64,000 bases of DNA, taken from assembly GCF_002943425.1 (NCBI RefSeq), contig NZ_PTRA01000001.1:3162001-3226000 (forward strand), read 5' to 3'. The first letter of the stretch is position 1; each line of letters opens with the position of its first letter. This document shows positions 47,622 to 59,018 of the stretch, in pieces. Origin of the DNA: Siphonobacter curvatus. GTDB lineage: Bacteria; Bacteroidota; Bacteroidia; Cytophagales; Spirosomataceae. Position numbers and translations under genes: made by a program. Below the pieces are notes generated by a model that was not told the DNA's origin, searched no databases, and was given only the letters and a program-made list of their open reading frames with translations.

Positions 47622-47747
47622 CTAGGGTCTCGGTTCTTCGGCTACGCGAACCGTATCTCGGTCGTGACGGCGATTGCCACTTTTGGAACAACCGGCACAA
47701 CTCATCAGCCCCAGGCCGAGTAAGAGCAGTAAACAATAAAATTTCAT
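47622..47747 (-). CDS. Micro-lipoprotein, 41 residues, last gene of the tubulin-actin-motor operon
   Basis: ATG at 47745-47747, TAG at 47622-47624. The sequence starts MKFYCLLLLLGLGLMSC, a full lipoprotein signal with lipobox LMSC (Cys 17), followed by a second Cys and a short charged tail rich in Arg and Asp (SGNRRHDRDTVRVAEEPRP). The start overlaps the upstream stop as ATGA, the classic translational-coupling arrangement, which strongly supports a real gene. It may be an envelope anchor or small regulator of the motor; this is inference. Confidence 0.7.
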   Translation of the reverse strand: MKFYCLLLLLGLGLMSCAGCSKSGNRRHDRDTVRVAEEPRP

Positions 47748-48388
47748 AGCGATTTACCCACTTTTGAAGTGATCTGTATGGTAAACCGGCGATTGGCGTT
47801 TTCGTTCCGGGGATCGCGTGATTTCCCAAAATGGCCACTCCCTACAATCAGGACTTCACAATTCTTGAATTGATCGAAGTTGATGCCATTTTGCTTCCAG
47901 AAATCCACCAGAGCCAAGGCCCGGCGATAACTGAGTTCGTACCCATTCTGACGCCCAAAACTGCTCTGCCAGTTGTCATTCGCTCGTTGGGCATTGCCTT
48001 CTACCACAACCATATAACTGACGTCTGGGTTTTCTTTGGCTACGTTCTTGATTTTTCGGAACAGTACCTTGCCCGCTTCGAGTAGGCCATTGCGGGTACG
48101 GGCGTCGAGTTCGCTCATATCGGCCCGATTGGGTTTAAAATTGACGTCCACTCCCAATCGAAACCGCTTATTGTTCTCATCGTAACGAAAATAGGTTCCA
48201 TTCAGCTCCTGCAAAGCCCGCTCGATGGTCTGAATTTTCTGGTATTTTAGGGCATCGTTGATATACCCCTCCTCTTTCGACTTTAAAATGGCGACCGTCA
48301 GCACATACAGCACCAGCATGACGAAAAACAGACTCGTCATGAGATCGGTATAACTCGGCCAGAAAAAATCAGTATGTCTGGTTTTCAA
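47744..48388 (-). CDS. MotB/ZorB-like stator protein with OmpA domain
   Basis: 214 residues. A short cytoplasmic start, one membrane helix (about 14-34) with the motif YTDLMTSLFFVML; Asp15 sits where MotB/ExbD/ZorB proteins carry the ion-binding acid. After a helical linker (EGYINDALKYQKIQTIERAL) comes a peptidoglycan-binding OmpA-like domain (about 85-214) with VVVEGNAQ, LSYRRALALVDFWKQNGI, VGSGHF and NRRFTIQI. The start is TTG; no ATG keeps the helix, so low translation is likely. Partner of the MotA-like protein upstream. Confidence 0.85.
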   Translation of the reverse strand: MKTRHTDFFWPSYTDLMTSLFFVMLVLYVLTVAILKSKEEGYINDALKYQKIQTIERALQELNGTYFRYDENNKRFRLGVDVNFKPNRADMSELDARTRNGLLEAGKVLFRKIKNVAKENPDVSYMVVVEGNAQRANDNWQSSFGRQNGYELSYRRALALVDFWKQNGINFDQFKNCEVLIVGSGHFGKSRDPRNENANRRFTIQITSKVGKSL

Positions 48389-48421
48389 TGATTTAATTGA
48401 CTAATAACGTTAAGAAGCTCG

Positions 48422-48440
48422 CCCCGATTTGTAATCGGGG
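48422..48440 (-). other. Intercistronic hairpin upstream of the stator gene
   Basis: CCCCGATT and its complement in a 19-base hairpin, within the 130-base gap between the MotA-like and MotB-like genes. No T run follows, so RNA processing or partial attenuation is likelier than termination. Confidence 0.5.
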
Positions 48441-48518
48441 TGGATTGGTTTCGCGTCTGAGACCCTTAACCTGCTACGCCCCGATCTTTCCATGATGGTA
48501 ATAAATCGAGTAAGCTGG

Positions 48519-50114
48519 CTAACTCTTTGTTGAGAACATGCGGCTCCAGGCTCCTTTTTCCATCCGCTTCACCATGCGTTCGATGAGTTGCTGGGTCTGG
48601 CCCTGCTGACGACCTAAGGCTTCGAGTTGCTGACGAATCTGCTCCTGCCGCTGGGCGTTTTCTTTCTGGTACAGCTCGGCATTGCGTTCGAGCAGTTCCA
48701 GGTAATCGAGCTTGCTGAGTTTATCGCGATTTTGGGTAAAGTACTGATCCGTCGCGTTGATTTCCCGAATCTTGATGTCTTCGATGCTCTTCAACTGATC
48801 GTGGATGGTACGATCCAGTGCCCGCAGACTTTGATCGATCAAGTCATCGTACTGCCCTACCTTGTTATTAAAGGCCTGTCCATGCTGATCGAGTTGCTTG
48901 AAATGGCTCGTCAAGTATAGATACAGATCCTGCGATTGCTGGAGGCTTTTGGAAATCTGTACGGAAATGTCTTCGACGTTCTGCGTACGTTCGACGATTT
49001 TCTGCGTATTATCCACCAGTCCATTCAGCTGATTGAGGTAATACCCGAATTTCTCCAACGAATCCAGACTACTATCCAACTGACTCAGCACCTGAATATT
49101 AAAGCTAGCGACTCGATTCAAATCTACTTTTTGTAGGGTATCCAGAGCTTTTTGCTGGGCCATCAGCGACGCGTGGTTTTTATCCACCATGCCACTTAGC
49201 TCCTGAACATTATCCCGAAAGGTGGTACTAAAGTCCTGAATACTGCGGTTAAGCGTTGCAAAGATGCCCGCGTTTACGCCTTCGGAAAGGATGGGTAACA
49301 ATTCCGTTTGGAGAAAAGAGAAAAAACCCTGTTTACGGCTTTCTAGCGTAGCTTTCGAATTGCGGAACGTCCAGGAGTTAAGTACCGTCAGTAGCAGACC
49401 CGCTAAACTCGCCAACATGGCAATTTTCACGCCGCCGATGAGGTTATTGACGCCTTCGCCCTGTAGGAAGCTGGCCGACCCTACGGCTGGCATGGCAAAC
49501 AGACCGATCACAATACCCGCCATGGTACCCATCAGACCCAGGTACAGGGGAATGGGCATAGTTAGATTAATGCCTTCTTCTTCCGCATCCAGATTCCGTT
49601 CGGTAATGTCGCGTAACAAATTAAAATCCGCCAACGAAGTACGGTTGCGGATCAAGTAGGTATTGATGCTTTCAAGAATTTTACCGATGCCCTCAGTTTT
49701 ATCCGTCGAGACAATCAGGGGCAACTCCAGCGTTTCGCGACCCGGATTCATGGTTTTGAAATTCCAGAGGTCCTGACGTATCTGCTGTAATTCGGCCTCC
49801 GCTTCCGCCCGCATGACCTCGTGGAGCTCTTTGGAAAGGAGTACGACCAGTTGATCTTCCCGCCGGGTCAATTCTTCAAGTTGCAGATCGTTTACGTGCG
49901 TGCGTTGCGAAAGACTCTCGATTTGTTTGAGTACTTCGGCGGTGGATAGTTGTTCCAGATCCTGCCGAAGTATCCGATACCTCCGAAGGCTAAAGACGGA
50001 ACCTTCAGGAATTAATTCGCGAAATCGACTAATTCTACCCCGTGTATCCAGCCACACCCAGCCCTGGGCTACCAGAATTCCGAGAATAATGACGATTTCT
50101 ATTAGTTGGGTCAT
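48519..50114 (-). CDS. MotA/ExbB/ZorA-like proton-channel protein with coiled-coil tail
   Basis: 531 residues. Membrane helices at about 4-21, 188-210 and 228-248; between the first two lies a long cytoplasmic helical part. The MotA/TolQ/ExbB signature spans helices two and three (PLYLGLMGTMAGIVIGL and GGVKIAMLASLAGLLLTV). After residue 255 comes about 275 residues of heptad-rich coiled coil ending in Gln/Arg-rich helices. Long cytoplasmic tails on this fold are the hallmark of ZorA of the Zorya system. With the OmpA protein it should form a 5:2 ion-driven rotary motor. Gap of 130 bases to the stator gene. Confidence 0.88.
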   Translation of the reverse strand: MTQLIEIVIILGILVAQGWVWLDTRGRISRFRELIPEGSVFSLRRYRILRQDLEQLSTAEVLKQIESLSQRTHVNDLQLEELTRREDQLVVLLSKELHEVMRAEAEAELQQIRQDLWNFKTMNPGRETLELPLIVSTDKTEGIGKILESINTYLIRNRTSLADFNLLRDITERNLDAEEEGINLTMPIPLYLGLMGTMAGIVIGLFAMPAVGSASFLQGEGVNNLIGGVKIAMLASLAGLLLTVLNSWTFRNSKATLESRKQGFFSFLQTELLPILSEGVNAGIFATLNRSIQDFSTTFRDNVQELSGMVDKNHASLMAQQKALDTLQKVDLNRVASFNIQVLSQLDSSLDSLEKFGYYLNQLNGLVDNTQKIVERTQNVEDISVQISKSLQQSQDLYLYLTSHFKQLDQHGQAFNNKVGQYDDLIDQSLRALDRTIHDQLKSIEDIKIREINATDQYFTQNRDKLSKLDYLELLERNAELYQKENAQRQEQIRQQLEALGRQQGQTQQLIERMVKRMEKGAWSRMFSTKS

Positions 50115-50140
50115 GTGGGATTTTCGTTTGATACCTAGGT

Positions 50141-50194
50141 TTTGGGGTAGTTAAGTGTAGGCCCCCGAAGGTACTGACACTTAACTACCCCAAA
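50141..50194 (-). other. Intercistronic hairpin with 18-base perfect arms
   Basis: Arms 50141-50158 and 50177-50194 are perfectly complementary around an 18-base loop. It fills the 92-base gap between the adaptor and MotA-like genes. No T run on the minus strand, so not a typical terminator; possible RNA processing or stabilising element. Confidence 0.65.
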
Positions 50195-50206
50195 GCCTCT
50201 TCGCTT

Positions 50207-51493
50207 TTAATTTTCGAATCGAATGATTGCCTTGTATTGCAACTCCCAGCGATCCGAATCTACACTGGCTTTAGCTAGTTTTCCTTTGGCAACGGTGATA
50301 ATCCGGCGGGCTCCGTACTCAATGCCTCCGCCGTAATCACACACCGGATCCAGGAATGTTTCCGGATACCGCAGGGCTTCGCTCACTAAGCCTGGATCGT
50401 CCACAAATTCAAATTCCGCATCCAGCGGGCCCGTCAGACGTACCTGATACAGCGACTGGGAAGGATCAAACTGTGCTCCCCGGATATCCCGGAACGAGCC
50501 ATCTTTGTTGGGCGTCGACAGATAAAAAACCTCAAGTCCGCCTATAGTTACCGGAGCTGGAACCGCAGCAGGTTCCGGAATCGGTTCGGGATCTTCGGGA
50601 GCCGGAGCAACGGGGGGTTGAGGCGGCTGGGGAGGCACCACTACGGGTTCGGGTTCTTTTACCAGCTCCGGTTCCTTCGCCGCGGCCGCTTGCAAACTCT
50701 GCATGTCCTGTAGCCAGCGGTTCCGTTCGTTTTCGTTTTTCTGTTGAGCCTCTTTCAGAGCCTTGTCGTACTCTTTGAGTGCTTTCTCGTATTCCTTGAT
50801 TTTTTCAATCAACTGCGGCACCTGCTTTTCGAGTTGCTGCATTTTGATGTAACTCTGGCTCGCCTGACTCGAAGTATTGAGCATTTGCCGGTCAATTCGT
50901 TCCCGTTTCTTTTTCTCGTCCAGGTACAAATAACCCAGCCCGGCAGCGGCAAGTACGCTTATTCCCGAAATGATCCACCAAATCCAGGGCGAGTCGCCTG
51001 ATTTATTCGGTAAAATCGGAACTCCATCGAGGGCCTCCCGAGCTACCGTGTCGGGCATCACTTCCGTACCATCGGCTACAGTTGTATCGCCGCTATCGAT
51101 GATTTCGGATTCCGTAATTTCGGTTCGCAGGTTCGTCACAAAACTGCCCAGAGCTACCCGGGTTTTCAGAATCGACACCTTTTCACCCGTTTTCGGATCG
51201 GGTTCTTTCAGATTTTCCAGCTCCGTAAGAATCTTATTGACTTTCATCTTGTCCTGGTCGGTCAGGGGTCGGCTCAGGTACGGCTCCAGTTGACGCAGCA
51301 CCACCGCCACACTAGGCGTAGCCTTGTTGTCCAGGAAAAAATCCATCAATTTTTTAAAGAAATCAGCGTAGGTAGCTTTGGTATTCACACCACCAGCTTC
51401 CTGGAAAGTACTCTCTTTACGGGCCAAAGCCGTTTGGGCAAATCCGGAAACCGTCCAGAACAGGCACAAAACAAGAATGATGACTCGACGCAT
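50207..51493 (-). CDS. Membrane adaptor linking periplasm and cytosol
   Basis: 428 residues, unrecognised as a family. Layout: signal peptide (cleavage near GFAQ, about 20), a periplasmic helical domain (about 21-165), one membrane helix (SPWIWWIISGISVLAAAGLGYLYL, about 167-190), a charged coiled coil (about 195-275), a Pro/Glu-rich linker (EPVVVPPQPPQPPVAPAPEDPEPIP) and a C-terminal globular domain (about 315-428, LEVFYLSTPNKDG, YGGGIEYGARRII). The coiled coil and C-terminal domain should lie in the cytosol, in reach of the actin-like and tubulin-like proteins. Probably the physical link of the machine. Confidence 0.7.
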   Translation of the reverse strand: MRRVIILVLCLFWTVSGFAQTALARKESTFQEAGGVNTKATYADFFKKLMDFFLDNKATPSVAVVLRQLEPYLSRPLTDQDKMKVNKILTELENLKEPDPKTGEKVSILKTRVALGSFVTNLRTEITESEIIDSGDTTVADGTEVMPDTVAREALDGVPILPNKSGDSPWIWWIISGISVLAAAGLGYLYLDEKKKRERIDRQMLNTSSQASQSYIKMQQLEKQVPQLIEKIKEYEKALKEYDKALKEAQQKNENERNRWLQDMQSLQAAAAKEPELVKEPEPVVVPPQPPQPPVAPAPEDPEPIPEPAAVPAPVTIGGLEVFYLSTPNKDGSFRDIRGAQFDPSQSLYQVRLTGPLDAEFEFVDDPGLVSEALRYPETFLDPVCDYGGGIEYGARRIITVAKGKLAKASVDSDRWELQYKAIIRFEN

Positions 51494-51517
51494 ACGAAGG
51501 ATTCAAGGTTGGTTAAA

Positions 51518-51543
51518 ACGCGGACCCTTACCAGGGTCCGCGT
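51518..51543 (-). other. Intercistronic hairpin between ATPase and adaptor genes
   Basis: Eleven-base perfect arms ACGCGGACCCT/AGGGTCCGCGT with a four-base loop; minus-strand flank TTTTAACC. Partial terminator or processing site in the 72-base gap. Confidence 0.6.
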
Positions 51544-51565
51544 CGATAAAAATTTCCAAACGGCT

Positions 51566-54500
51566 CTAACTGGCCGCTTCCCAGGCTAACTGATTTAAAG
51601 CTCCCAGCAGGGGATAGAAAAAGAGCGTTTCTTCTACCGGACTGTTCAGGTTTTCGAGCGATTCCCGCCGCATTTCCCAGCCACTGTATACATTTTGCAG
51701 CAGATTTCGCAGGAGAATGTTCTTGTACTGATCCAGGCGGCCCTCGTTCACACCAAATTTTCCACTGAACGAAATTTCCAGACTAAAAAGCATATCCACA
51801 AACGCTTTCACCTCATCGGCTACGCCCTGTAATACCTCCCCGTCAATGTGCTGATACGTATCGCCGCGTACGACGATGCGATCTTCTTTCGTACCCAGCA
51901 GAACGGTTTTGATGCGGTCCATCTGGGCTTCCAGCGTACCGTCGTCTTCACGGGAGAAGTTCAATCCGGGCATTTTCAAACCACCCTTACAAGTCGATTC
52001 CTTGGGCGAATTGCGTTCACGTACAATGTCAAGCCCATCGGCGTGGTAGGGGGCATCGTATACCTTTTCGAAAATTAGCTTAGCCAGATCGGCCAGAGCC
52101 ACGTTTCGGGGTGTCAGAATGTCGAGCAATTTAGAACCCGTTCCACTGAAGGCAATATACCGCGGCATCTTCTTGTCTTTCGCCTTCATCAAACGGGCCA
52201 AATGGTAGATTTGAGCCGTATAGAATACTAGCGGAACAATCTTGAGATCGGAGTCATTGGCTAGCCGGTCGTTGAAATCGTAGGCTGCTTTTTCCCGTAA
52301 ATCCAGGTTGTTTTTCAGCGAGAAATAAAATGCCACAATATCTTCCGAACGGTTGTTCGCCTTGATCGACTCGTAAGCCCGGTGCAGGTTACTGAAATTA
52401 GCCGACAGGTGCGAGCTTACTTCCGGATCATATTTCTTGACGAAGCCATTGCGAGCTGCCGCTCCATCCCGGGCGAAGCCGTCGCCGAATACGGCATTAC
52501 CGGCAAAACGCACGGAAGTCAGCATATTCGGCTGGTTTCCTTCGAAAATAACGATGTCGGACGTACCTCCTCCAATATCAATCAGAGCCGTCGGGTAAAT
52601 GTTGGAATCAATGGGCTGACTACTACCACCTCCCCGGCTATACCAGTAAAAAGGGGCAATACTTTCGGGGACTTTCCGGGGCATCCGCTCGCGACTGATG
52701 GTTTCGGCGTACAGCTTGTTCCAAAGTCCTTCAAAGTAATTACGCTGGTTTTCAACCATACTCAAGGGGTAAAACCAGAGTAATTCGGTATGAGCCAGGT
52801 TTCCACCGTTGATGAGTACTTTATTGCGGATCAATAGCAACAGCGACTGCAGGAAGCCTTCAATCCGCTTCTGAGCCTTGATATTTTTACTGAAATCGGA
52901 CCACTTCAGATTCGTTGAAATGGTATAGTCATCTTTGGGAATATTCCGCTTTTCGTACAGGAATCCAATATTAAAGTCCCCGAAGCCGAACAGATTTTCA
53001 CCCGAAAAATTAGGCCGGTTTTCGATCAGAGCCGTCCGCTGCGGAAACTTGCAGAGATACGCTTCACCCAGGTGTTCGGGCATCATTTCCTGCGGTACCA
53101 GTTCGGCAATGGGTATGGCTCGCGTACCGTTGAATGACCCATCCCGCTCGGGGAAAGTGGGGTCATGCAGGGTCGCGATCTGTACATCGTCGTCGATGGT
53201 AAAGGGCCGCGGTTGCCGATCATCGGAAGTAGTAAACTCCACGTGTGTATTGGTGGTACCGAAATCGACGGCGAAGGTAAAGACCGTGTCCTTCATCTCG
53301 CGTACTTCGAATTTCGGTAAAATGACGCCGCGATGGCCCGCTACTTCAACCGTAATTCGTTCGAAATCAGCTTCTACGACGTGAACCTCTGACTTAGCAC
53401 CCGTACCAATATCTTTCTGACTCCGCGGACGAACCCGGTTGTCAGGCACGGGAATAAGCTGGTTATTCTGATCGAAGAAACTGAGTTTGTATTCGTTCTT
53501 GAATGTCTGAGCCGACACGTCCCGATCCACCAGATGCACCCGGTACATGGGTTTGAAATTAGCCAGCGGCGGACGTTTCATCTTGACGAAGGGGAATACC
53601 GTCATGCCAAATTGGTGCTCGGCAATGACGCCTTCGTTTTTCTCCTCGTTGGGCGATTTGGTCGGATCATCGTAGTACATCCGGGAGAGCTTCAGTGTCC
53701 GGCCCGTGGGTACTACTTTTTGCTGAGCAACGTCCCATTTTCCCAGCGGAATCTGTAAGGTCACGCGAACCGAACCGCCCGCCCGTTCTTCCATCTGAAT
53801 ATTGACTTCCCCACCCCGCATCAGATCCTGAGCGGAGAAAAACTCGAAGAAATCCGATTTCAGTGGTAGCAGATAGCTCTTTTGTACATTCCGCAAACCA
53901 CCGTCAAAGTACCGTTGGGAATGAATGGGATAGACCAGCCGAATCAAATGCGGTTCCAGGAAATCGCTGGTCGTCAGGTAGGGATAAAAATCCGCCTGAC
54001 CGGGCAGTTGCCGCTGGTTGGTACGCCAGTCTTCGGACACAAAATGCTTTACGTCAATCGTATCCCGCCAGGGAATCCGCGTGTACGGAATGGGCTCGAA
54101 GAAATCCCTGGACAGAATCATGGGAGCCGGTTTGCCCGTGTAGCGTTGTTTTTTGACGCCATACTCGTCCAGCTCTTCGGTCGGACTAATCAGGAAATGA
54201 CTCAGGCCCTGAATGACTTCCGGTCCCGACGCCGCTTTCCGCATTTTAAAGGCGGGACCCTGTCCCGTGGAAGCAAATTCAACGGTGTAGTTCGTATCGA
54301 ATTCCAGCTCCGGAAAATCGGCATTCCAGGCTTCTTCCCGCAGGTTTTGGCCGTTGGCTCCGATCCGCTGCCAAGTGTCGTAATTTCGGGTATGCAACAG
54401 CTCCAGACTGCGGCTGAGATACTCGGACACTTCGGGATACATTTCCCGGAAACCCGGCATAAAACGCTTCAATCCGTGCCAGAACACCTGGTACTCAATG

Positions 54501-55129
54501 TCGCGTTCGTGCAGCGGGACGGGATTATTCCGGTCAAATACGCGGTGATTTCCGAAGTGAATATCCACGAAATCCAGAGCGTTCGGAGCCGTAAAAAACA
54601 GCGTAGCGGGCGAAGTACCTCCAATCACGCCCGTTCCTTCGCGACTTTGGTAGTGCAGAATAAACAGCTTACGCAAGCCACCGAAGTTGTAGCTGGCGGC
54701 GTCTTCACGCAGGTACAGATCCAGGGCACTGCCCAGACGCTGGTGGTTACGCGAGCCGTTTTGCAACGTACGCAGAGCCTGTTCCCGATCCCAAGTAATG
54801 ATTCGGACCGGGCCACGGGGCGACTTGAATTTATCGTAATTGAAGAAGATTTCCCCCACGTCGAAACAGGCCGAAACCAGCCGTTCGTCGTTCAAGGATC
54901 CTTTCAGGTCACTGCGTAAAATCAGATTACGGAAAGCAGATTTCACCAGATCAAAGCGGGCAAACGGACTGGGAATGGACGTCGGATCTTTCTCCGTATC
55001 GCCTTTGGCCTTGTCCTGAATCGCCTCGATCAGATCGGTAGTATAGGGTTGCGAAGTAAACCAGTGCCCATCAACCGAAGCCGAGCGGTCGTGCAGGTTT
55101 AGTTCGCGTTTTAATGACTGGTCTGACAT
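51566..55129 (-). CDS. Actin/Hsp70-like ATPase with large N-terminal extension
   Basis: 1187 residues. The C-terminal half holds the actin/Hsp70 nucleotide fold: phosphate-1 FAVDFGTTNTHVEF (Asp622), phosphate-2 LIDIGGGTSDIVIF (Asp851), and the adenosine loop AFSGTGSKLLD (about 993-1002). The first about 600 residues are a separate region I do not recognise, mixed alpha/beta, with FNNHRVF-like and DLYLREDAAS segments. Size and layout recall SrfB-type proteins, but identity is unproven. Cytoplasmic, ATP-driven polymer or chaperone-like switch between the tubulin homologue and the membrane motor. Confidence 0.82.
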   Translation of the reverse strand: MSDQSLKRELNLHDRSASVDGHWFTSQPYTTDLIEAIQDKAKGDTEKDPTSIPSPFARFDLVKSAFRNLILRSDLKGSLNDERLVSACFDVGEIFFNYDKFKSPRGPVRIITWDREQALRTLQNGSRNHQRLGSALDLYLREDAASYNFGGLRKLFILHYQSREGTGVIGGTSPATLFFTAPNALDFVDIHFGNHRVFDRNNPVPLHERDIEYQVFWHGLKRFMPGFREMYPEVSEYLSRSLELLHTRNYDTWQRIGANGQNLREEAWNADFPELEFDTNYTVEFASTGQGPAFKMRKAASGPEVIQGLSHFLISPTEELDEYGVKKQRYTGKPAPMILSRDFFEPIPYTRIPWRDTIDVKHFVSEDWRTNQRQLPGQADFYPYLTTSDFLEPHLIRLVYPIHSQRYFDGGLRNVQKSYLLPLKSDFFEFFSAQDLMRGGEVNIQMEERAGGSVRVTLQIPLGKWDVAQQKVVPTGRTLKLSRMYYDDPTKSPNEEKNEGVIAEHQFGMTVFPFVKMKRPPLANFKPMYRVHLVDRDVSAQTFKNEYKLSFFDQNNQLIPVPDNRVRPRSQKDIGTGAKSEVHVVEADFERITVEVAGHRGVILPKFEVREMKDTVFTFAVDFGTTNTHVEFTTSDDRQPRPFTIDDDVQIATLHDPTFPERDGSFNGTRAIPIAELVPQEMMPEHLGEAYLCKFPQRTALIENRPNFSGENLFGFGDFNIGFLYEKRNIPKDDYTISTNLKWSDFSKNIKAQKRIEGFLQSLLLLIRNKVLINGGNLAHTELLWFYPLSMVENQRNYFEGLWNKLYAETISRERMPRKVPESIAPFYWYSRGGGSSQPIDSNIYPTALIDIGGGTSDIVIFEGNQPNMLTSVRFAGNAVFGDGFARDGAAARNGFVKKYDPEVSSHLSANFSNLHRAYESIKANNRSEDIVAFYFSLKNNLDLREKAAYDFNDRLANDSDLKIVPLVFYTAQIYHLARLMKAKDKKMPRYIAFSGTGSKLLDILTPRNVALADLAKLIFEKVYDAPYHADGLDIVRERNSPKESTCKGGLKMPGLNFSREDDGTLEAQMDRIKTVLLGTKEDRIVVRGDTYQHIDGEVLQGVADEVKAFVDMLFSLEISFSGKFGVNEGRLDQYKNILLRNLLQNVYSGWEMRRESLENLNSPVEETLFFYPLLGALNQLAWEAAS

Positions 55130-55220
55130 AAGTTCAATGAATGAAGGAGTGTATGAAAAGAGCTGATGCCCGATTCATGGCTCCGTAAGGTTCCAATGAA
55201 TGAAGACGATGCCTTCGGTC

Positions 55221-56759
55221 TTAGCTTCCGGACAGCTGTGAATATTCTTTTTGCAGGAATTGATCCGTACAGGTATTCATCAGCGTCAGGAATTTGTCTT
55301 CCGGCGTGACGTAGGTTTTCCCTTTTGATTCCGCATTGAGGTATTCATCGAATTCCCCTTTGTTCATCTCGATTTCTACGTCTACGGTTTTCCCAAAGAA
55401 GTTTTTCTTGGTACGCTCGAAACCGGGAATAAACTTCCCTAAATCTTCCGTCGCCAGATTGAAGGGGCGGAAGGTTCGTTTATTGAAGACGTTCCGGTCG
55501 TGATCGTTCATCTCCAGCAGCCAGGTACGGAAGTTCTCGTTGAAGTCGTGCAGATTCCGGTAGAACTTCGTCTGACGGAAATCTGAACCAATTTTAGGAG
55601 CTTCCTTACTAGTCCAGGGAGCACTGTTGCTGCCCAGAATACCATCGCGTTCCACCCGGGTTTTCAGGTATTGGCTCAGAATGCCAAACTGACTCAGCGG
55701 TCGAGCGATAACCTGTCGCGTACGATCCACAAAATCCGCGAAATTCAGTCGGTTATTACTCGTACCCAAACCAAACTCCGCGTACCGTGGATTGCGGGCA
55801 ATGATCTGTCCGTCCCGTACCGTGCACTCCAGCTCGCTGGCATGTTCGCAGAAGTCAACGACGGATAACGCCGCTACCATTTCGATGTAGTGAGCATCGT
55901 TTTGTTGCCCACCCGCTCCGGGATCGTAATCGTACGGGCTCCGGTAGCTTTCGGCTAGGTAATACAAGGCGTTGAGCTTGGGGTATTCTTTGTTGGAAAG
56001 GCTGTTCTGATAATAACCCAACGCCGCTTTCGTCTTGGAAATAAAGGTAGCGTTATCGATGGCCTTGTCCTGGGCACCAGCCGAGTACACGTCGAAGTAG
56101 GGCTGAACCGACACAGCTCCGATCCGGGCTTCGCGAACATCTTTGGCGTCCGAGCCACCGTACCCACGGATATTCTTGAGAATCAGCGGAAAACCAGCAG
56201 CTCCGGTTCCTCCAAAAATGGAACTGACGATGAATACTTTATCTTCTTTTTTGAACGAGCTGACAAAGGCTTTGAACTCTTCCGATTCCCGGAACTGGTT
56301 CAGTACGACCGAACCAATATTCGGATTTCCCACAAAGCCAATATCCATTTTGGTATCCAGCTGTTCTTTGGAAAACAGCAGATCAGCCAGGGCATGATTG
56401 GATTCATCCAGCGAGTCGTGGCCAATGTAATTACCGTATTTTTCGTCGCTTACGCCCTTGAGTTCGTACTGAAACGAATCCGAGATGGAGGCACTGGGCA
56501 GCTGACGTTTCAGGGTTTGAATGTCAGTACCAAACAGTCCCGACGAAGGCGGATTTTGCAGCGAAGCCCGTACGTTCTGGTATTGATTCAGAATCTCCTT
56601 GGTTCGCTTCAGGTCTTTATTTTCCGCGTGGGGATCCATCAGAATGGGGATCACCTGCGTGGTATTACGGAGCTTAACGCCCGAAGCCAGTAGATACGTC
56701 AGCGACTTTACCACCCGGGCTCCGGTACCTCCAATCGCAAACAAAAAGAGTCGAGACAT
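55221..56759 (-). CDS. Tubulin/FtsZ-like GTPase
   Basis: 512 residues. The nucleotide-binding N-terminal domain shows the first loop AIGGTGARVVKSL (residues 8-20) and the tubulin signature SSIFGGTGAAGFPLIL (about 179-194), the GGTG core of the GTP phosphate loop. Other tubulin-type elements: VIPILMDPHAENKDLKRT (about 37-54) and NATFISKTKAALGYY. The C-terminal third is divergent. Members of this group are distinct from FtsZ, and I see no division genes nearby. Expected to polymerise in the cytosol, perhaps guiding the ATPase or motor. Confidence 0.85.
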   Translation of the reverse strand: MSRLFLFAIGGTGARVVKSLTYLLASGVKLRNTTQVIPILMDPHAENKDLKRTKEILNQYQNVRASLQNPPSSGLFGTDIQTLKRQLPSASISDSFQYELKGVSDEKYGNYIGHDSLDESNHALADLLFSKEQLDTKMDIGFVGNPNIGSVVLNQFRESEEFKAFVSSFKKEDKVFIVSSIFGGTGAAGFPLILKNIRGYGGSDAKDVREARIGAVSVQPYFDVYSAGAQDKAIDNATFISKTKAALGYYQNSLSNKEYPKLNALYYLAESYRSPYDYDPGAGGQQNDAHYIEMVAALSVVDFCEHASELECTVRDGQIIARNPRYAEFGLGTSNNRLNFADFVDRTRQVIARPLSQFGILSQYLKTRVERDGILGSNSAPWTSKEAPKIGSDFRQTKFYRNLHDFNENFRTWLLEMNDHDRNVFNKRTFRPFNLATEDLGKFIPGFERTKKNFFGKTVDVEIEMNKGEFDEYLNAESKGKTYVTPEDKFLTLMNTCTDQFLQKEYSQLSGS

Positions 56760-56786
56760 AAGAGTTGGGAGTTTTGAGTTTTCAAA

Positions 56787-56848
56787 GTTTTGAGTGTAGC
56801 GTTTAGCATAAATGGGGGTATCCCAACGCGAAACCCTGCACTCAAAAC
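56787..56848 (-). other. Intercistronic nested hairpin
   Basis: Ten-base arms GTTTTGAGTG (56787-56796) and CACTCAAAAC (56839-56848), enclosing a smaller TGGG/CCCA stem near 56813-56825. In the gap between the tubulin-like gene and the membrane protein gene. Confidence 0.45.
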
Positions 56849-56857
56849 GCTAAACTC

Positions 56858-57283
56858 CTAAAATGGAATTTTCCGGTTGTTTGTACTTACGTTTTTTACA
56901 ACCAGCGATAGAACGAAAAAGAGAATAGCTGCCAGGATCAGCATTTCGAAACCAAAGCCGAAAAAGATACTGCCGCCCTGGTCGAAAAACCGGCCCTGCT
57001 CGGGGTGTCCTTTCCGGCGGGGAATTTCCTGAGCCGCCTTCTGCGAGCAGGTCACAATGGCGACGATCATGGTCAGTACGGCACTGCTGCCCAGTACGGC
57101 CAGCCAGGTAGAGGCTTTGGCGTAACGTACTTTGTTCATCCCGAAGTAATAAATCGCTACTCCTACCAATACAAAGACCAGCATAGTGAGCGTCAGGGAG
57201 GTCAGCAGCGTTTCGTCGTATAAATCATTGAGCAGGGAGTTCTCAACAAAGAGAGCGTAAAAGTCGTACAGTAGATTTTCCAT
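56858..57283 (-). CDS. Three-helix membrane protein of the operon
   Basis: 141 residues with helices at about 28-48, 57-79 and 107-129, no signal peptide. A polar loop with RRKGHPEQGRFFDQGG lies between helices two and three. Its ATG overlaps the stop of the VWA lipoprotein as TAATG, so the two are translated together. No family recognised; probably the inner-membrane seat for the lipoprotein or the cytoskeletal protein. Confidence 0.7.
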   Translation of the reverse strand: MENLLYDFYALFVENSLLNDLYDETLLTSLTLTMLVFVLVGVAIYYFGMNKVRYAKASTWLAVLGSSAVLTMIVAIVTCSQKAAQEIPRRKGHPEQGRFFDQGGSIFFGFGFEMLILAAILFFVLSLVVKNVSTNNRKIPF

Positions 57284-58635
57284 TAATTATTCAAAGTAAG
57301 GCTGATTGCAAAATAGGTGTCGGCGTTTTGGGGATTGTACGCTTTTTCAATACCCCGGGTAAAGTTGAGCAAACCAAACGTGGTTTCCGCAAAGGCTTCG
57401 GCATTCGGGTTACTATCGTCCTGCGTATGCGTTTGCGTAATCCAGCGGGGCGGGAATTTACGTTTGAGTCGAATAGTAATTTCACGTTTTCCCCCACCCT
57501 GCGGTTCCGGCGTAGAGAGCAAAAACTTGTGGGTATAGCCCTCGGGTCCATTCTCCGCTACAATTTTCTGAATTTTAAAGTCTTCGTCCGATTCAATCTC
57601 GTAGGATTTGGGATCGGTCTTGTAGGATTCCGGCAGATAAAAACCGCCCAGATCGACGCCTAAGGCAATGGTCAGCCCCTGCGTTTTGCGGTCGGCCTTG
57701 ATATTTTCGAGCGTATGCACGATGTTGGAACGCTCCTTCCGTTCCTGACGACTTTGCTCAAATTGCCCGGCCTGTTCGGCGTCTTTTAATAACACCGTAT
57801 AAAAAGGAAGGTTATCCGTAGCACTGGTAAAATAATGGAAAGAGTCGAAGCCCGGCAATTCAGAGAAGCGAGAAAGCGACTCAAATTTAGGATCTGCCAG
57901 CAGAGCTTTCATCGTGGCGTTCGTAGCCATCAGGGCAATGTAATACGGCCGCGAACCACTGTAGGGTTTACCTCCGCCGTTGTGGGGATAGTACGTACCC
58001 TTGAATTGACCATTGAGTTTCAGCAGCAAAAGCGACTTTCCTTTGGTCTGCGGAGCAAAGGTCGTTTGCATGAGTGTTTCTACATCCGCCAGAATTTTCG
58101 TTGCCGACTGGGCGGTCGTTGATTCCGTCGAGTAGATCAGGTCCGAAAACAGGACGCCTACCTCTCCTTCTTTCAGGTCGGAAAGAATCGTTTTAAAAAT
58201 AAGGCTGAAATCAGTGTGTTTGGAGTCGCCTTTCCCTTCGGTTAGCGTGAAAATATTGGGTTGTTCCACCAACTGCTGGAAACTCACCCCCATTGGGTAC
58301 ACGTTATCATTGACAACGAACAATTCCGTCGAACCCGACTTCTGGGTTTCAAATTCCGTTAGCAGTTTCTGGAGAGCTTCGTCAAATTCTCCCGTACTCC
58401 CCGCCGCATCGTAGGGAAACATACTGCCACTGGCTTCCAAATAAAGCTTGGCTTTGAGGTTTTTAGGAGCGGCCTTAGGGGTTTCAGCTACCGGAGCAGA
58501 CGCGGTGGACGGTTCGGTAGCTTCTTCGGAAACTTGGTTTCCACGTTTCCCGCTACCGCCGCCGCATTGCGTCAATACCAGTAAGGACGTCGTTAGTACT
58601 GATAGATAAAAGGTTCGAGACCAGGAAATGGACAT
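57283..58635 (-). CDS. VWA-like lipoprotein, first gene of the operon
   Basis: 450 residues. Lipoprotein signal with LVLTQC (Cys 24), then a Ser/Thr/Ala/Pro-rich linker to about 60. KLYLEASGSMFPYD (64-76) resembles the von Willebrand A metal site, but the usual Asp of DxSGS is Glu (E67). GVLFSDLIYSTES corresponds to the next VWA strand. The C-terminal part (about 330-450) is beta-rich (REITIRLKRKFPPRW). Probably in the periplasm, sensing or bridging envelope layers. First gene of the run; promoter expected in 58636-59018. Confidence 0.7.
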   Translation of the reverse strand: MSISWSRTFYLSVLTTSLLVLTQCGGGSGKRGNQVSEEATEPSTASAPVAETPKAAPKNLKAKLYLEASGSMFPYDAAGSTGEFDEALQKLLTEFETQKSGSTELFVVNDNVYPMGVSFQQLVEQPNIFTLTEGKGDSKHTDFSLIFKTILSDLKEGEVGVLFSDLIYSTESTTAQSATKILADVETLMQTTFAPQTKGKSLLLLKLNGQFKGTYYPHNGGGKPYSGSRPYYIALMATNATMKALLADPKFESLSRFSELPGFDSFHYFTSATDNLPFYTVLLKDAEQAGQFEQSRQERKERSNIVHTLENIKADRKTQGLTIALGVDLGGFYLPESYKTDPKSYEIESDEDFKIQKIVAENGPEGYTHKFLLSTPEPQGGGKREITIRLKRKFPPRWITQTHTQDDSNPNAEAFAETTFGLLNFTRGIEKAYNPQNADTYFAISLTLNN

Positions 58636-59018
58636 AGATTACAAATGCTTGGAGAGTTTTTAGGAAAACTCCCGTACCAGAGAACGACGCGAACTTGTTC
58701 CGAATTTTACGAAACTCCAACTGATTTATGGCCTAAGGGCAGATTTTTCTTACCAATGTATATAAATCGCCGTTAGCGTGTCCTGAAAAGCTCGCTGGCT
58801 TATCACTATCCCCACTACGCCTCTTTTACGCTTTGGTTGCATCAGCCTCTTTTCCATCTACTTCACTCGGCTAAGTATTTATCTCTTTAACGAGTATAAA
58901 TAACCATTCAACGGCAATTAATAACCATTCAACTAACAAATAATATTTAAGTCTATATACTCATTTTACTTTGCATCACTATCCAACGAATCATCTATAC
59001 TTTTTACAAATCCTATCC
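58636..59018. other. Divergent promoter region of the motor operon and barrel gene
   Basis: 383 bases between two divergent genes. It holds the direct-repeat site at 58903-58932 and a TACTTTG near 58967 that is one base short of a -7 element for the barrel gene. No gene seen. Confidence 0.5.
58903..58932. promoter_or_regulatory. Candidate LytTR-type operator
   Basis: Two identical nine-base direct repeats ACCATTCAA at 58903-58911 and 58924-58932, with exactly 12 bases between them (21-base period). This is the arrangement bound by LytTR-family response regulators, and the bases resemble ComE/AgrA-type half sites. It lies about 35 bases before the likely -7 of the barrel gene. Regulator unknown. 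Confidence 0.45.

What the first reader, a model, noticed from the sequence alone, without database searches (positions are those of the whole stretch)
47622..58635. Tubulin, actin-like ATPase and ion-driven motor encoded in one operon
Eight minus-strand genes in a row encode a VWA-like lipoprotein, a three-helix membrane protein, a tubulin/FtsZ-like GTPase, a 1187-residue actin/Hsp70-like ATPase, a membrane adaptor with a cytosolic coiled coil, a MotA/ZorA-like channel, a MotB/OmpA stator and a micro-lipoprotein. Start/stop overlaps (TAATG, ATGA) at both ends and gaps of 72-130 bases in between bind them together. Having both cytoskeletal folds plus a rotary motor anchored to peptidoglycan is rare. 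I recall FtsZ-like families linked to VWA and OmpA proteins and predicted to remodel membranes; this could be a richer version. Function (envelope remodelling, transport, motility or defence) is inference.
Basis: partly seen in the sequence, partly recalled or inferred. Interest (0 to 1): 0.93.

Follow-up and report, generated by a model that had tools for sequence, protein, structure and literature searches.

The report
Tubulin-actin-motor envelope operon in Bacteroidota
A Siphonobacter bacterium carries a conserved gene set for an apparently unstudied machine in its cell envelope that pairs a tubulin-like with an actin-like protein, in some relatives adds an ion-driven motor of the anti-phage Zorya type, and often ends with interchangeable enzymes sharing one lipoprotein tag.

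Summary
In detail: eight minus-strand genes lie at 47622-58635 of a Siphonobacter genome. The 512-aa protein is a divergent tubulin/FtsZ (Tubulin_2 type); the 1187-aa protein has an actin/MreB-like ATPase half. The motor pair is closer to Zorya ZorA/ZorB than to flagellar MotA/MotB. "VWA" rests on a motif only.
Comparison of 98 loci shows a five-gene core around the tubulin: VWA-like 86/88, 3TM 81/88, actin 85/88, adaptor 75/81; the motor is an optional module (ZorA 23/72). One genome has the operon split in two, both halves kept. The system is patchy: 9 of 395 Bacteroidota, own genome included.
New here: many operons end in exchangeable lipoproteins (retropepsin, SNase, trypsin-like) sharing an N-terminal leader, Cys-x(1-5)-[ST]-G; an SG..[RK] pattern hit 0 of 52 flank lipoproteins. 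The Siphonobacter micro-lipoprotein is that leader alone.
Best reading, inferred: an FtsZ/FtsA-like NTPase pair in an envelope-spanning sensor-effector machine with a plug-in Zorya-type motor. Function untested.

The parts
57283..58635 (-). VWA-like lipoprotein (450 aa); core gene; MIDAS-like E67-x-S69-x-S71 at 58423-58437
   Evidence: E67, S69 and D165 invariant, Cys24 and S71 nearly invariant, in 20 members; no Pfam or PDB match, so the fold is a motif-level guess
56858..57283 (-). three-helix membrane protein (141 aa); core gene
   Evidence: hydropathy 26-44, 61-79, 111-129; upstream of tubulin in 81 of 88 loci
55221..56759 (-). tubulin/FtsZ-like GTPase (512 aa), Tubulin_2/FtsZl1 type; IGGTGxR at 56715-56735, IFGGTGAAGFP at 56187-56219
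   Evidence: pLDDT 84.2, pTM 0.90; FtsZ 3.8e-4
51566..55129 (-). actin/MreB-like ATPase (1187 aa): C-terminal actin-fold half (DFGTTNTH 53243-53266; DIGGGTSD 52556-52579) behind about 610 residues of unassigned fold
   Evidence: pLDDT 82.0, pTM 0.69; MreB 2.6e-8; 318 matches E<=1e-3
50207..51493 (-). inner-membrane adaptor (428 aa): signal-peptide-like start, periplasmic part, one TM, cytosolic coiled-coil-like stretch, Pro-rich linker, conserved C-terminal domain
   Evidence: downstream of actin in 75 of 81 loci
48519..50114 (-). ZorA-like channel subunit (531 aa): 3 TM and about 280-residue tail; Gly-Thr motif at 49524-49529
47744..48388 (-). ZorB-like stator (214 aa): TM with invariant Asp15 (48344-48346) and OmpA-like domain
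   Evidence: ZorB 5.6e-10; ZorB 8vvn 3.8e-11, 8qyd 8.3e-10
47622..47747 (-). 41-aa micro-lipoprotein, mature start CAGCSKSGNRRH; same leader as the cargo lipoproteins of other operons
   Evidence: (also in L040, L041, L043, L044)
48417..48443 (.). GC-rich hairpin in the 130-bp ZorA-ZorB gap
   Evidence: no T run on the operon strand
58636..58970 (-). probable promoter region of the operon (between divergent genes)
   Evidence: position only; no promoter identified

Best explanation
A dedicated envelope-spanning machine. In the cytoplasm a tubulin-like GTPase and an actin-like ATPase work as one unit, in principle like FtsZ and FtsA, where an actin homologue holds and shapes tubulin-homologue polymers at the membrane. 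The adaptor (periplasmic part, one TM, cytosolic conserved domain) and the three-helix protein tie the unit to the inner membrane; the VWA-like lipoprotein is its periplasmic or outer-membrane end. Where present, a Zorya-type ZorA/ZorB ion channel anchored to peptidoglycan is a plug-in that senses or powers: peptidoglycan contact by ZorB lets ions flow, the ZorA tail changes state inside the cell and acts on the adaptor/tubulin/actin unit. The NTP-driven change is passed back across the membrane and positions or activates lipoprotein hydrolases (aspartic protease, nuclease, trypsin-like protease) that carry the shared Cys...[ST]-G leader. The likeliest use is surveillance and defence of the envelope against phages or competitors. 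Shown: gene set, order, folds of the tubulin GTPase part and the actin half (predicted models), Zorya-like motor sequences, conserved nucleotide motifs, modularity, shared leader. Inferred: every physical contact, direction of signal, localisation, and use.
For: Core kept together: VWA-like 86/88, 3TM 81/88, actin 85/88, adaptor 75/81; pairwise distances of tubulin and actin correlate at r=0.985 over 81 loci, tubulin-VWA 0.932, tubulin-ZorA 0.903 (common descent contributes). 9 of 9 actin-bearing genomes of a 395-genome sample have the tubulin beside it. Split operon with both halves kept: VWA-3TM-tubulin and, about 230 kb away, actin-adaptor-ZorA. Nucleotide motifs invariant in 19 actin and 34 tubulin rows, stator Asp15 in 14 rows. 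Motor nearest to Zorya. Motor optional: of 8 genomes lacking ZorA beside the tubulin, 7 have none at E<=1e-5 anywhere. ZorA lacks the Gly-Thr motif in one clade (L061, L062, L064) where no ZorB is seen; the 24 other rows, near-duplicates included, have it. Leader ([ST]-G after the Cys) on unrelated passengers: 15 of 16 retropepsin-type, 7 of 9 SNase, 4 of 4 trypsin-like, 5 of 5 passenger-less, against 0 of 52 flank and 3 of 70 VWA-like lipoproteins for an SG..[RK] pattern. Accessory character: 9 of 395 Bacteroidota; two genomes of the window's own family branch with Hydrotalea/Cryomorpha; a full copy in a Leptospiraceae record. FtsZ/FtsA precedent: PMC5832921, start of abstract in a listing.
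Against: No direct evidence for any contact, localisation or phenotype. No defence island: among 87 proteins scanned (84 flank genes of 31 loci plus 3 putative effectors) PADLOC hits were scattered; no control set was run. Within Siphonobacter the operon sits beside ispE in each locus that reaches that far, more like a resident function. Some full operons have no cargo lipoprotein (L029, L030) and one, L118, is followed by a lipoprotein without the leader. The leader was noticed and tested on the same data. The VWA fold is unproven. The tubulin fold match is modest, with unrelated folds at E 2.0e-3 from rank 6 on.
Confidence: 0.4

Rival explanations
1. An anti-phage system in the strict sense: a Zorya relative in which ZorAB senses envelope breach by a phage and the tubulin/actin unit replaces ZorCD or ZorE as the cytoplasmic responder.
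For: ZorB and ZorA are the nearest characterised relatives; patchy distribution and apparent transfer; one copy of the core lies beside a phage DNA methyltransferase and tail-fibre gene on a contig classed as viral; caspase-, trypsin- and nuclease-type partners are common effectors in conflict systems (recalled; domains).
Against: No ZorC-G partner among ten genes scanned; ZorC gives no match in the genome but its control was silent, ZorD only sub-cut-off matches of a kind that also ring in 11 of 14 control genomes. ZorA in only 23 of 72 loci. No defence island seen. The operon starts 0.8 kb from the end of that viral contig, so it may be host flank.
Confidence: 0.25
2. Membrane remodelling or vesicle formation, as proposed for FtsZl1 operons in 2010; tubulin and actin polymers shape the inner membrane, the motor and OmpA-like domain hold the cell wall.
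For: Tubulin_2/FtsZl1-type protein plus VWA-like and OmpA-like partners as in PMC2875224.
Against: Does not explain exchangeable tagged hydrolases or a ZorA-type tail; 386 of 395 sampled genomes lack the actin. A reviewer in that paper objected that cytoplasmic and periplasmic parts are separated.
Confidence: 0.2
3. A lipoprotein transport or surface-display machine: the leader is a sorting signal and the NTPases/motor power movement of tagged lipoproteins across the envelope.
For: Shared leader on unrelated passengers, seen only in this operon as far as looked; ion motors power type 9 secretion and Ton uptake (abstract passage of PMC11890865).
Against: Leader differs from the known acidic export signal K-(D/E)2 (PMC5080379, abstract and passages). 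No outer-membrane channel recognised in the operon. Core exists without cargo in some loci.
Confidence: 0.15

Closest known systems
FtsZl1 / Tubulin_2 operons (Makarova and Koonin 2010, PMC2875224)
   Same: Divergent tubulin-superfamily GTPase with VWA-type and OmpA-type partners in one operon, membrane-associated
   Different: There most members have a long coiled coil and a helical C-terminal domain and are partnered by kinases and a P-loop GTPase; the parts of the text read (1-3 of 5) describe no actin-like partner or MotA/ZorA motor. Here a 512-aa tubulin is paired with an actin-like ATPase in 85 of 88 loci
FtsZ/FtsA (division)
   Same: Tubulin homologue plus actin homologue as one membrane-bound unit (PMC5832921, PMC5508204: start of abstracts in a listing)
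   Different: Separate, patchily distributed operon; actin-like protein is 1187 aa and its listed fold matches are MreB/actin, not FtsA; partners are a motor, adaptor and lipoproteins
Zorya ZorA/ZorB
   Same: Three-TM channel subunit with long tail; stator with TM Asp and OmpA-like domain; best PDB matches
   Different: No ZorC/D, ZorE or ZorF/G found (as far as searched); partners are tubulin, actin, adaptor; the motor is optional
MreB-type actins
   Same: Actin-fold ATPase half with both phosphate motifs
   Different: About 610 extra N-terminal residues of unassigned fold; different gene context
Bacteroidetes lipoprotein export signal (PMC5080379)
   Same: Short N-terminal signal right after the lipobox Cys
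   Different: Known signal is acidic, K-(D/E)2; here Ser/Thr-Gly mostly followed by basic residues, on this operon's cargo

Membership tests
FtsZl1 / Tubulin_2 | Tubulin-superfamily GTPase domain with GG(G)TG signature | tested here: met
   IFGGTG invariant in 34 rows; PF13809 22 of 34 members; Foldseek FtsZ 3.8e-4. Window protein alone is 0.8 bits under the Pfam cut-off
FtsZl1 / Tubulin_2 | Long coiled coil and helical C-terminal domain (majority of FtsZl1) | tested here: not met
   512 aa; model has helices 345-371, 398-418, 486-505 but no extended coiled coil. A majority feature, not strictly defining
FtsZl1 / Tubulin_2 | Operon with VWA and OmpA-family proteins | tested here: inconclusive
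   ZorB found in 19 of 72 loci; VWA only by motif
Zorya | ZorA and ZorB homologues | tested here: met
   ZorA at family level only
Zorya | Type-defining partners ZorC+ZorD, ZorE, or ZorF+ZorG | tested here: not met
   none among ten genes scanned; ZorC no match genome-wide with silent control, ZorD sub-cut-off only; ZorE/F/G not searched genome-wide. Not filed as Zorya
Zorya | Anti-phage activity | not testable with these tools
   needs experiment
Actin superfamily | Actin-type ATPase fold with phosphate-1 and phosphate-2 motifs | tested here: met
FtsA | FtsA-specific 1C subdomain and C-terminal membrane helix (recalled) | tested here: inconclusive
   FtsA is the best Pfam match (5e-4, at one phosphate motif only) but not among the 50 listed fold matches; membrane helix not examined
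VWA domain | Rossmann-type fold with MIDAS D-x-S-x-S | tested here: inconclusive
   E-x-S-x-S and a conserved Asp in 20 members, no profile match; no structure predicted
Bacteroidetes lipoprotein export signal | C-X-K-(D/E)2-X acidic motif | tested here: not met
   cargo leaders listed read Cys...[ST]-G, mostly followed by R/K/H; compared by eye

The most novel reading that the evidence does not exclude
A new class of envelope machine in which a second, non-division tubulin/actin pair is coupled across the membrane to a peptidoglycan-anchored ion motor, and commands a swappable set of lipoprotein hydrolases through a dedicated N-terminal address tag.
Probability: 0.3. Interest if true: 0.95.

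Novelty: new variant of a known kind. Interest (0 to 1): 0.75.

Why it matters
Outside division (FtsZ/FtsA), a conserved tubulin/actin pair is not known to me in bacteria (recall). This operon makes one testable in cultured Spirosoma, Pedobacter and Siphonobacter. It gives the 2010 FtsZl1 prediction a concrete parts list; no functional study of that family stood out in the listings, most of whose papers I did not open. It also shows a Zorya-like motor as an optional module outside the three Zorya types, and the lipoprotein tag offers a handle on the output.

Tried and rejected
Chance cluster: rejected. Flagellar MotAB as nearest relative: rejected; the best chain named MotB matches at 0.0066 against ZorB 3.8e-11. 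Defence-island context: not seen. Plasmid-borne system: in the plasmid collection one full-length match each for tubulin and actin, both on a 1.77-Mb Prevotella replicon, and five partial tubulin matches on cyanobacterial plasmids. Leader-tagged lipoproteins elsewhere in the genome, for the form C-x-G-C-S-x-[ST]-G only: own genome 2 pattern matches, one being the micro-lipoprotein, the other not translated. In 20 relatives 58 matches against 51 for the reversed control pattern, so mostly chance; I translated 32, of which only the operon copy of G004 was a lipoprotein; 5 more are operon copies by position; 21 were not looked at. Tubulin profile against PDB sequences was weak (FtsZ-type 0.083; 0.39 with 34 rows) and needed the fold search. 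The GST matches and most coiled-coil matches look like composition noise. Sigma-70 promoter scan: 3 found, 12.7 expected from shuffles; it does not cover Bacteroidota promoters. Literature: searches of an open-access library brought no paper that by title or opening abstract joins tubulin-like, actin-like and motor proteins in one operon; supplements of PMC2875224, whose lists of associated 'hypothetical' families might include the actin-like protein, could not be read.

L113 and L116 were dropped because no tubulin ORF survived my greedy ORF choice, which also missed at least one ZorB (L083), so 19/72 is a lower bound. The phylum searches used different limits (actin 1e-10, tubulin 1e-5) and include the own genome, as do the 21 of 59 relatives. 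Tree: 76 rows, after leaving out 20 loci judged short or without tubulin, 2 duplicates and 2 by length; L083 was mislabelled there as lacking the motor. Corrected on a FastTree tree the count is 5 changes instead of 6. ZorA without ZorB: L061's stretch ends at ZorA, so only L062 and L064 are certain, and the three are one clade, i.e. one event. Leader counts: left out are L083's retropepsin-like ORF (has the leader; class not tested), an upstream SNase in L072 without lipobox, and the C1-cluster proteins of L048, L054 and L080 that are caspase- or TPR-type. The two SNases without it are L028 and L155 (the latter on the other strand). Passenger classes rest on Pfam for L067 (two), L025, L062 and L078 and on BLAST clusters or reading for the rest.

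Full report
What is there. Eight ORFs on the minus strand at 47622-58635 with spacings -1, 98, 91, 72, 92, 130 and -4 bp. The genome is Siphonobacter-like: a 99%-identical tubulin lies in Siphonobacter sp. BAB-5405. Downstream are ispE and a COX3-like gene, upstream a TonB-dependent receptor.

Tubulin. The 512-aa protein matches Tubulin_2 at 6.1e-6 (26.2 bits, cut-off 27) and Tubulin at 4.6e-4 (cut-off not reached); 22 of 34 relatives match Tubulin_2. IGGTG and IFGGTG are invariant or nearly so. The AlphaFold model (pLDDT 84.2, pTM 0.90) has FtsZ, FtsZ, CetZ, FtsZ and TubZ as its five best PDB matches, the best at 3.8e-4 with target-normalised TM 0.33-0.41. Four matches reach 1e-3; unrelated folds (a nucleoside hydrolase, an aldolase) appear from rank 6 at 2.0e-3. 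A divergent member whose GTPase part is recognisable.

Actin. The 1187-aa protein has DFGTTNTH and DIGGGTSD with D622, G624, T625, D851 and G853-855 invariant in 19 rows. Its model (pLDDT 82.0, pTM 0.69) matches MreB at 2.6e-8, with 318 matches at E<=1e-3; the 50 listed are by title MreB, actin, ParM, Arp or Hsp70 or complexes that hold them. About 610 N-terminal residues have no assigned fold.

Motor. The stator profile finds Zorya ZorB chains 8vvn_B (3.8e-11), 8qyd_F (8.3e-10) and 8vvi_A (1.5e-5) ahead of chains named MotB (0.0066, 0.0088); PMC11890865 gives 8VVN and 8VVI as type I and II ZorAB (passages). The window ZorA-like protein alone matches no ZorA model, but its family profile has ZorA 8vvn_C as best match at 9.4e-4 (then a coiled-coil chimera at 0.0012; E. 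coli ZorA 0.23), and 7 of 16 members match a ZorA2 model. Asp15 of the stator TM is invariant in 14 rows.

Conservation. Of 59 near relatives, own genome included, 21 have the tubulin. The order VWA-like/3TM/tubulin/actin/adaptor recurs with other flanks. Counting loci with enough contig: VWA-like 86/88, 3TM 81/88, actin 85/88, adaptor 75/81, ZorA 23/72, ZorB at least 19/72. In an even sample of 395 Bacteroidota, own genome included, actin is in 9 and tubulin in 14; all 9 have both, adjacent; of the other 5 tubulins four are divergent (E 4e-62 to 6e-9) and one, with an internal stop, is in an assembly with 13% contamination. Pairwise distances: tubulin-actin r=0.985, ZorA-ZorB 0.898; common descent explains part of this.

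Modularity. With corrected labels the motor needs 5 changes on a tubulin tree (6, where L083 was mislabelled). This fits an old motor with several losses but also several gains. Of 8 genomes without ZorA at the locus, 7 have no match elsewhere; the eighth (G040) has the operon split: VWA-3TM-tubulin at 3.36 Mb, actin-adaptor-ZorA at 3.59 Mb. Keeping both halves is good evidence for joint function. In the clade L061/L062/L064 ZorA persists with no ZorB in view and without the Gly-Thr motif that the 24 other rows have. So ZorA may have a role beyond ion flow.

Cargo lipoproteins. The 3' end of many operons holds one or two small lipoproteins: retropepsin-type (PF13975 2.5e-14, 4.3e-17), SNase (PF00565 7.2e-26), trypsin-like (PF13365 2.8e-26, 1.7e-27). 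Spirosoma profusum has a TPR-caspase, an M48 peptidase and a second caspase-like protein there instead; these start with signal-peptide-like sequences, not the leader. The mature lipoproteins start alike: CSGCSRSGSHQPRR, CTQSGRRKP, CNSKSGNRK, CSRSGKKS, CHSCSRSGRK. By class, 15 of 16 retropepsin, 7 of 9 SNase, 4 of 4 trypsin-like and 5 of 5 passenger-less Siphonobacter genes carry [ST]-G shortly after the Cys. The pattern SG..[RK] in the first 12 residues hits 17 of 34 other operon lipoproteins, 3 of 70 VWA-like lipoproteins and 2 of 54 flank lipoproteins; both of the latter are retropepsin cargo cut off from the operon by another ORF, so 0 of 52 (lipoproteins found by a rough lipobox rule, ORFs of 70 aa or more). 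Fisher on 19/36 against 0/52 gives 1e-9, but motif and test share data and homologous passengers are not independent; the point is the sharing between unrelated passengers. The 41-aa micro-lipoprotein of the window, present in all five Siphonobacter loci checked, is the leader without a passenger.

Mobility and setting. Two genomes of the window's own family (L029, L030) group with Hydrotalea, Cryomorpha and Halomarinibacterium (support 99/92; 100/97 one node deeper), and a Leptospiraceae record holds the full operon: transfer is likely. Flank genes show no evident defence island; no control set was run. Of 45 pattern hits in viral contigs, 3 encode relatives; L158 has the core beside a phage-type methyltransferase and tail-fibre gene, but close to the contig end; L159 and L160, nearly alike, carry VWA-3TM-tubulin-actin-ZorA-ZorB, L159 beside a UvrD-type helicase. 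Whether these are phage cargo or host flank is open.

How it may work. Predicted sides: tubulin and actin cytoplasmic; 3TM, adaptor and ZorAB in the inner membrane; ZorB reaching peptidoglycan; VWA-like and cargo lipoproteins in the periplasm or outer membrane (hydropathy and lipobox only). The known analogue for the central pair is FtsZ/FtsA, in which an actin homologue attaches treadmilling tubulin-homologue polymers to the membrane (PMC5832921, start of abstract). The simplest scheme is a signal or force passed between cell wall and cytoplasm by ZorAB, converted by the tubulin/actin unit and passed through the adaptor to periplasmic parts, with tagged hydrolases as output. Because core and cargo persist where the motor is missing (Spirosoma), the motor looks like a booster or sensor rather than the heart. 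All links are inference.

Known or new. The tubulin belongs with FtsZl1/Tubulin_2, whose operons were predicted in 2010 to remodel membranes (PMC2875224, text parts 1-3 of 5 read). The motor resembles Zorya, but no type-defining partner was found, so it is not filed as Zorya. The combination with an actin-like ATPase, the motor module and the tagged cargo did not turn up in searches of an open-access library. I rate it a new variant of a known kind, with a fair chance of being a class of its own.

Noticed in passing
window 48417-48443: GC-rich hairpin (CCCCGATT...AATCGGGG) in the ZorA-ZorB gap, single copy in the window at up to 3 mismatches; attenuator or dispersed palindrome not decided.
   Followed up: partly
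L061, L062, L064 (ZorA genes): ZorA kept without the Gly-Thr motif and with no ZorB seen: possibly a motor-free ZorA lineage, useful to separate scaffold from ion flow.
   Followed up: partly
L031 and L152 (genome G040): Operon broken into two places about 230 kb apart with both halves kept.
   Followed up: yes
L048 16594-20977 and L054 16756-21272: TPR-caspase, M48 peptidase and a second caspase-like protein downstream of the adaptor in Spirosoma profusum; a similar-looking gene set in S. arboris (not profiled).
   Followed up: partly
L069 19301-20377, L078 6982-8043: HSDR_N-type nuclease next to the operon in Pedobacter and, by 43% identity, Mucilaginibacter (2 of 87 scanned proteins match HSDR_N).
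   Followed up: partly
L069 4620-6963, L078 4403-6793, L072 3777-6105: A long lipoprotein- or kinase-like gene and a response-regulator-like gene pair next to the operon; possible regulator.
   Followed up: no
L118 20288-21410, L153 1-888, L154 413-2611: Lipoprotein genes of one kind (CGPAKQ.., CKSTQP.., CRSAQP..; peptidase-like by eye) follow the operon in the L118/L153/L154 group, without the [ST]-G leader.
   Followed up: no
L027 and L065: Tandem adaptor genes and an extra 590-611-aa membrane protein after ZorA (before ZorB in L065).
   Followed up: no
L061 11486-15076: Three extra ORFs between tubulin and actin, the actin still full length.
   Followed up: no
L158 8210-11791; L159, L160: Operon copies on contigs classed as viral, one beside tail-fibre and methyltransferase genes.
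   Followed up: partly
own genome G000 C1:3364462-3364926 (L002): A second PF00091 tubulin/FtsZ match (65.7 bits) about 138 kb beyond the window, besides the FtsZ-strength match at C1:64395.
   Followed up: no
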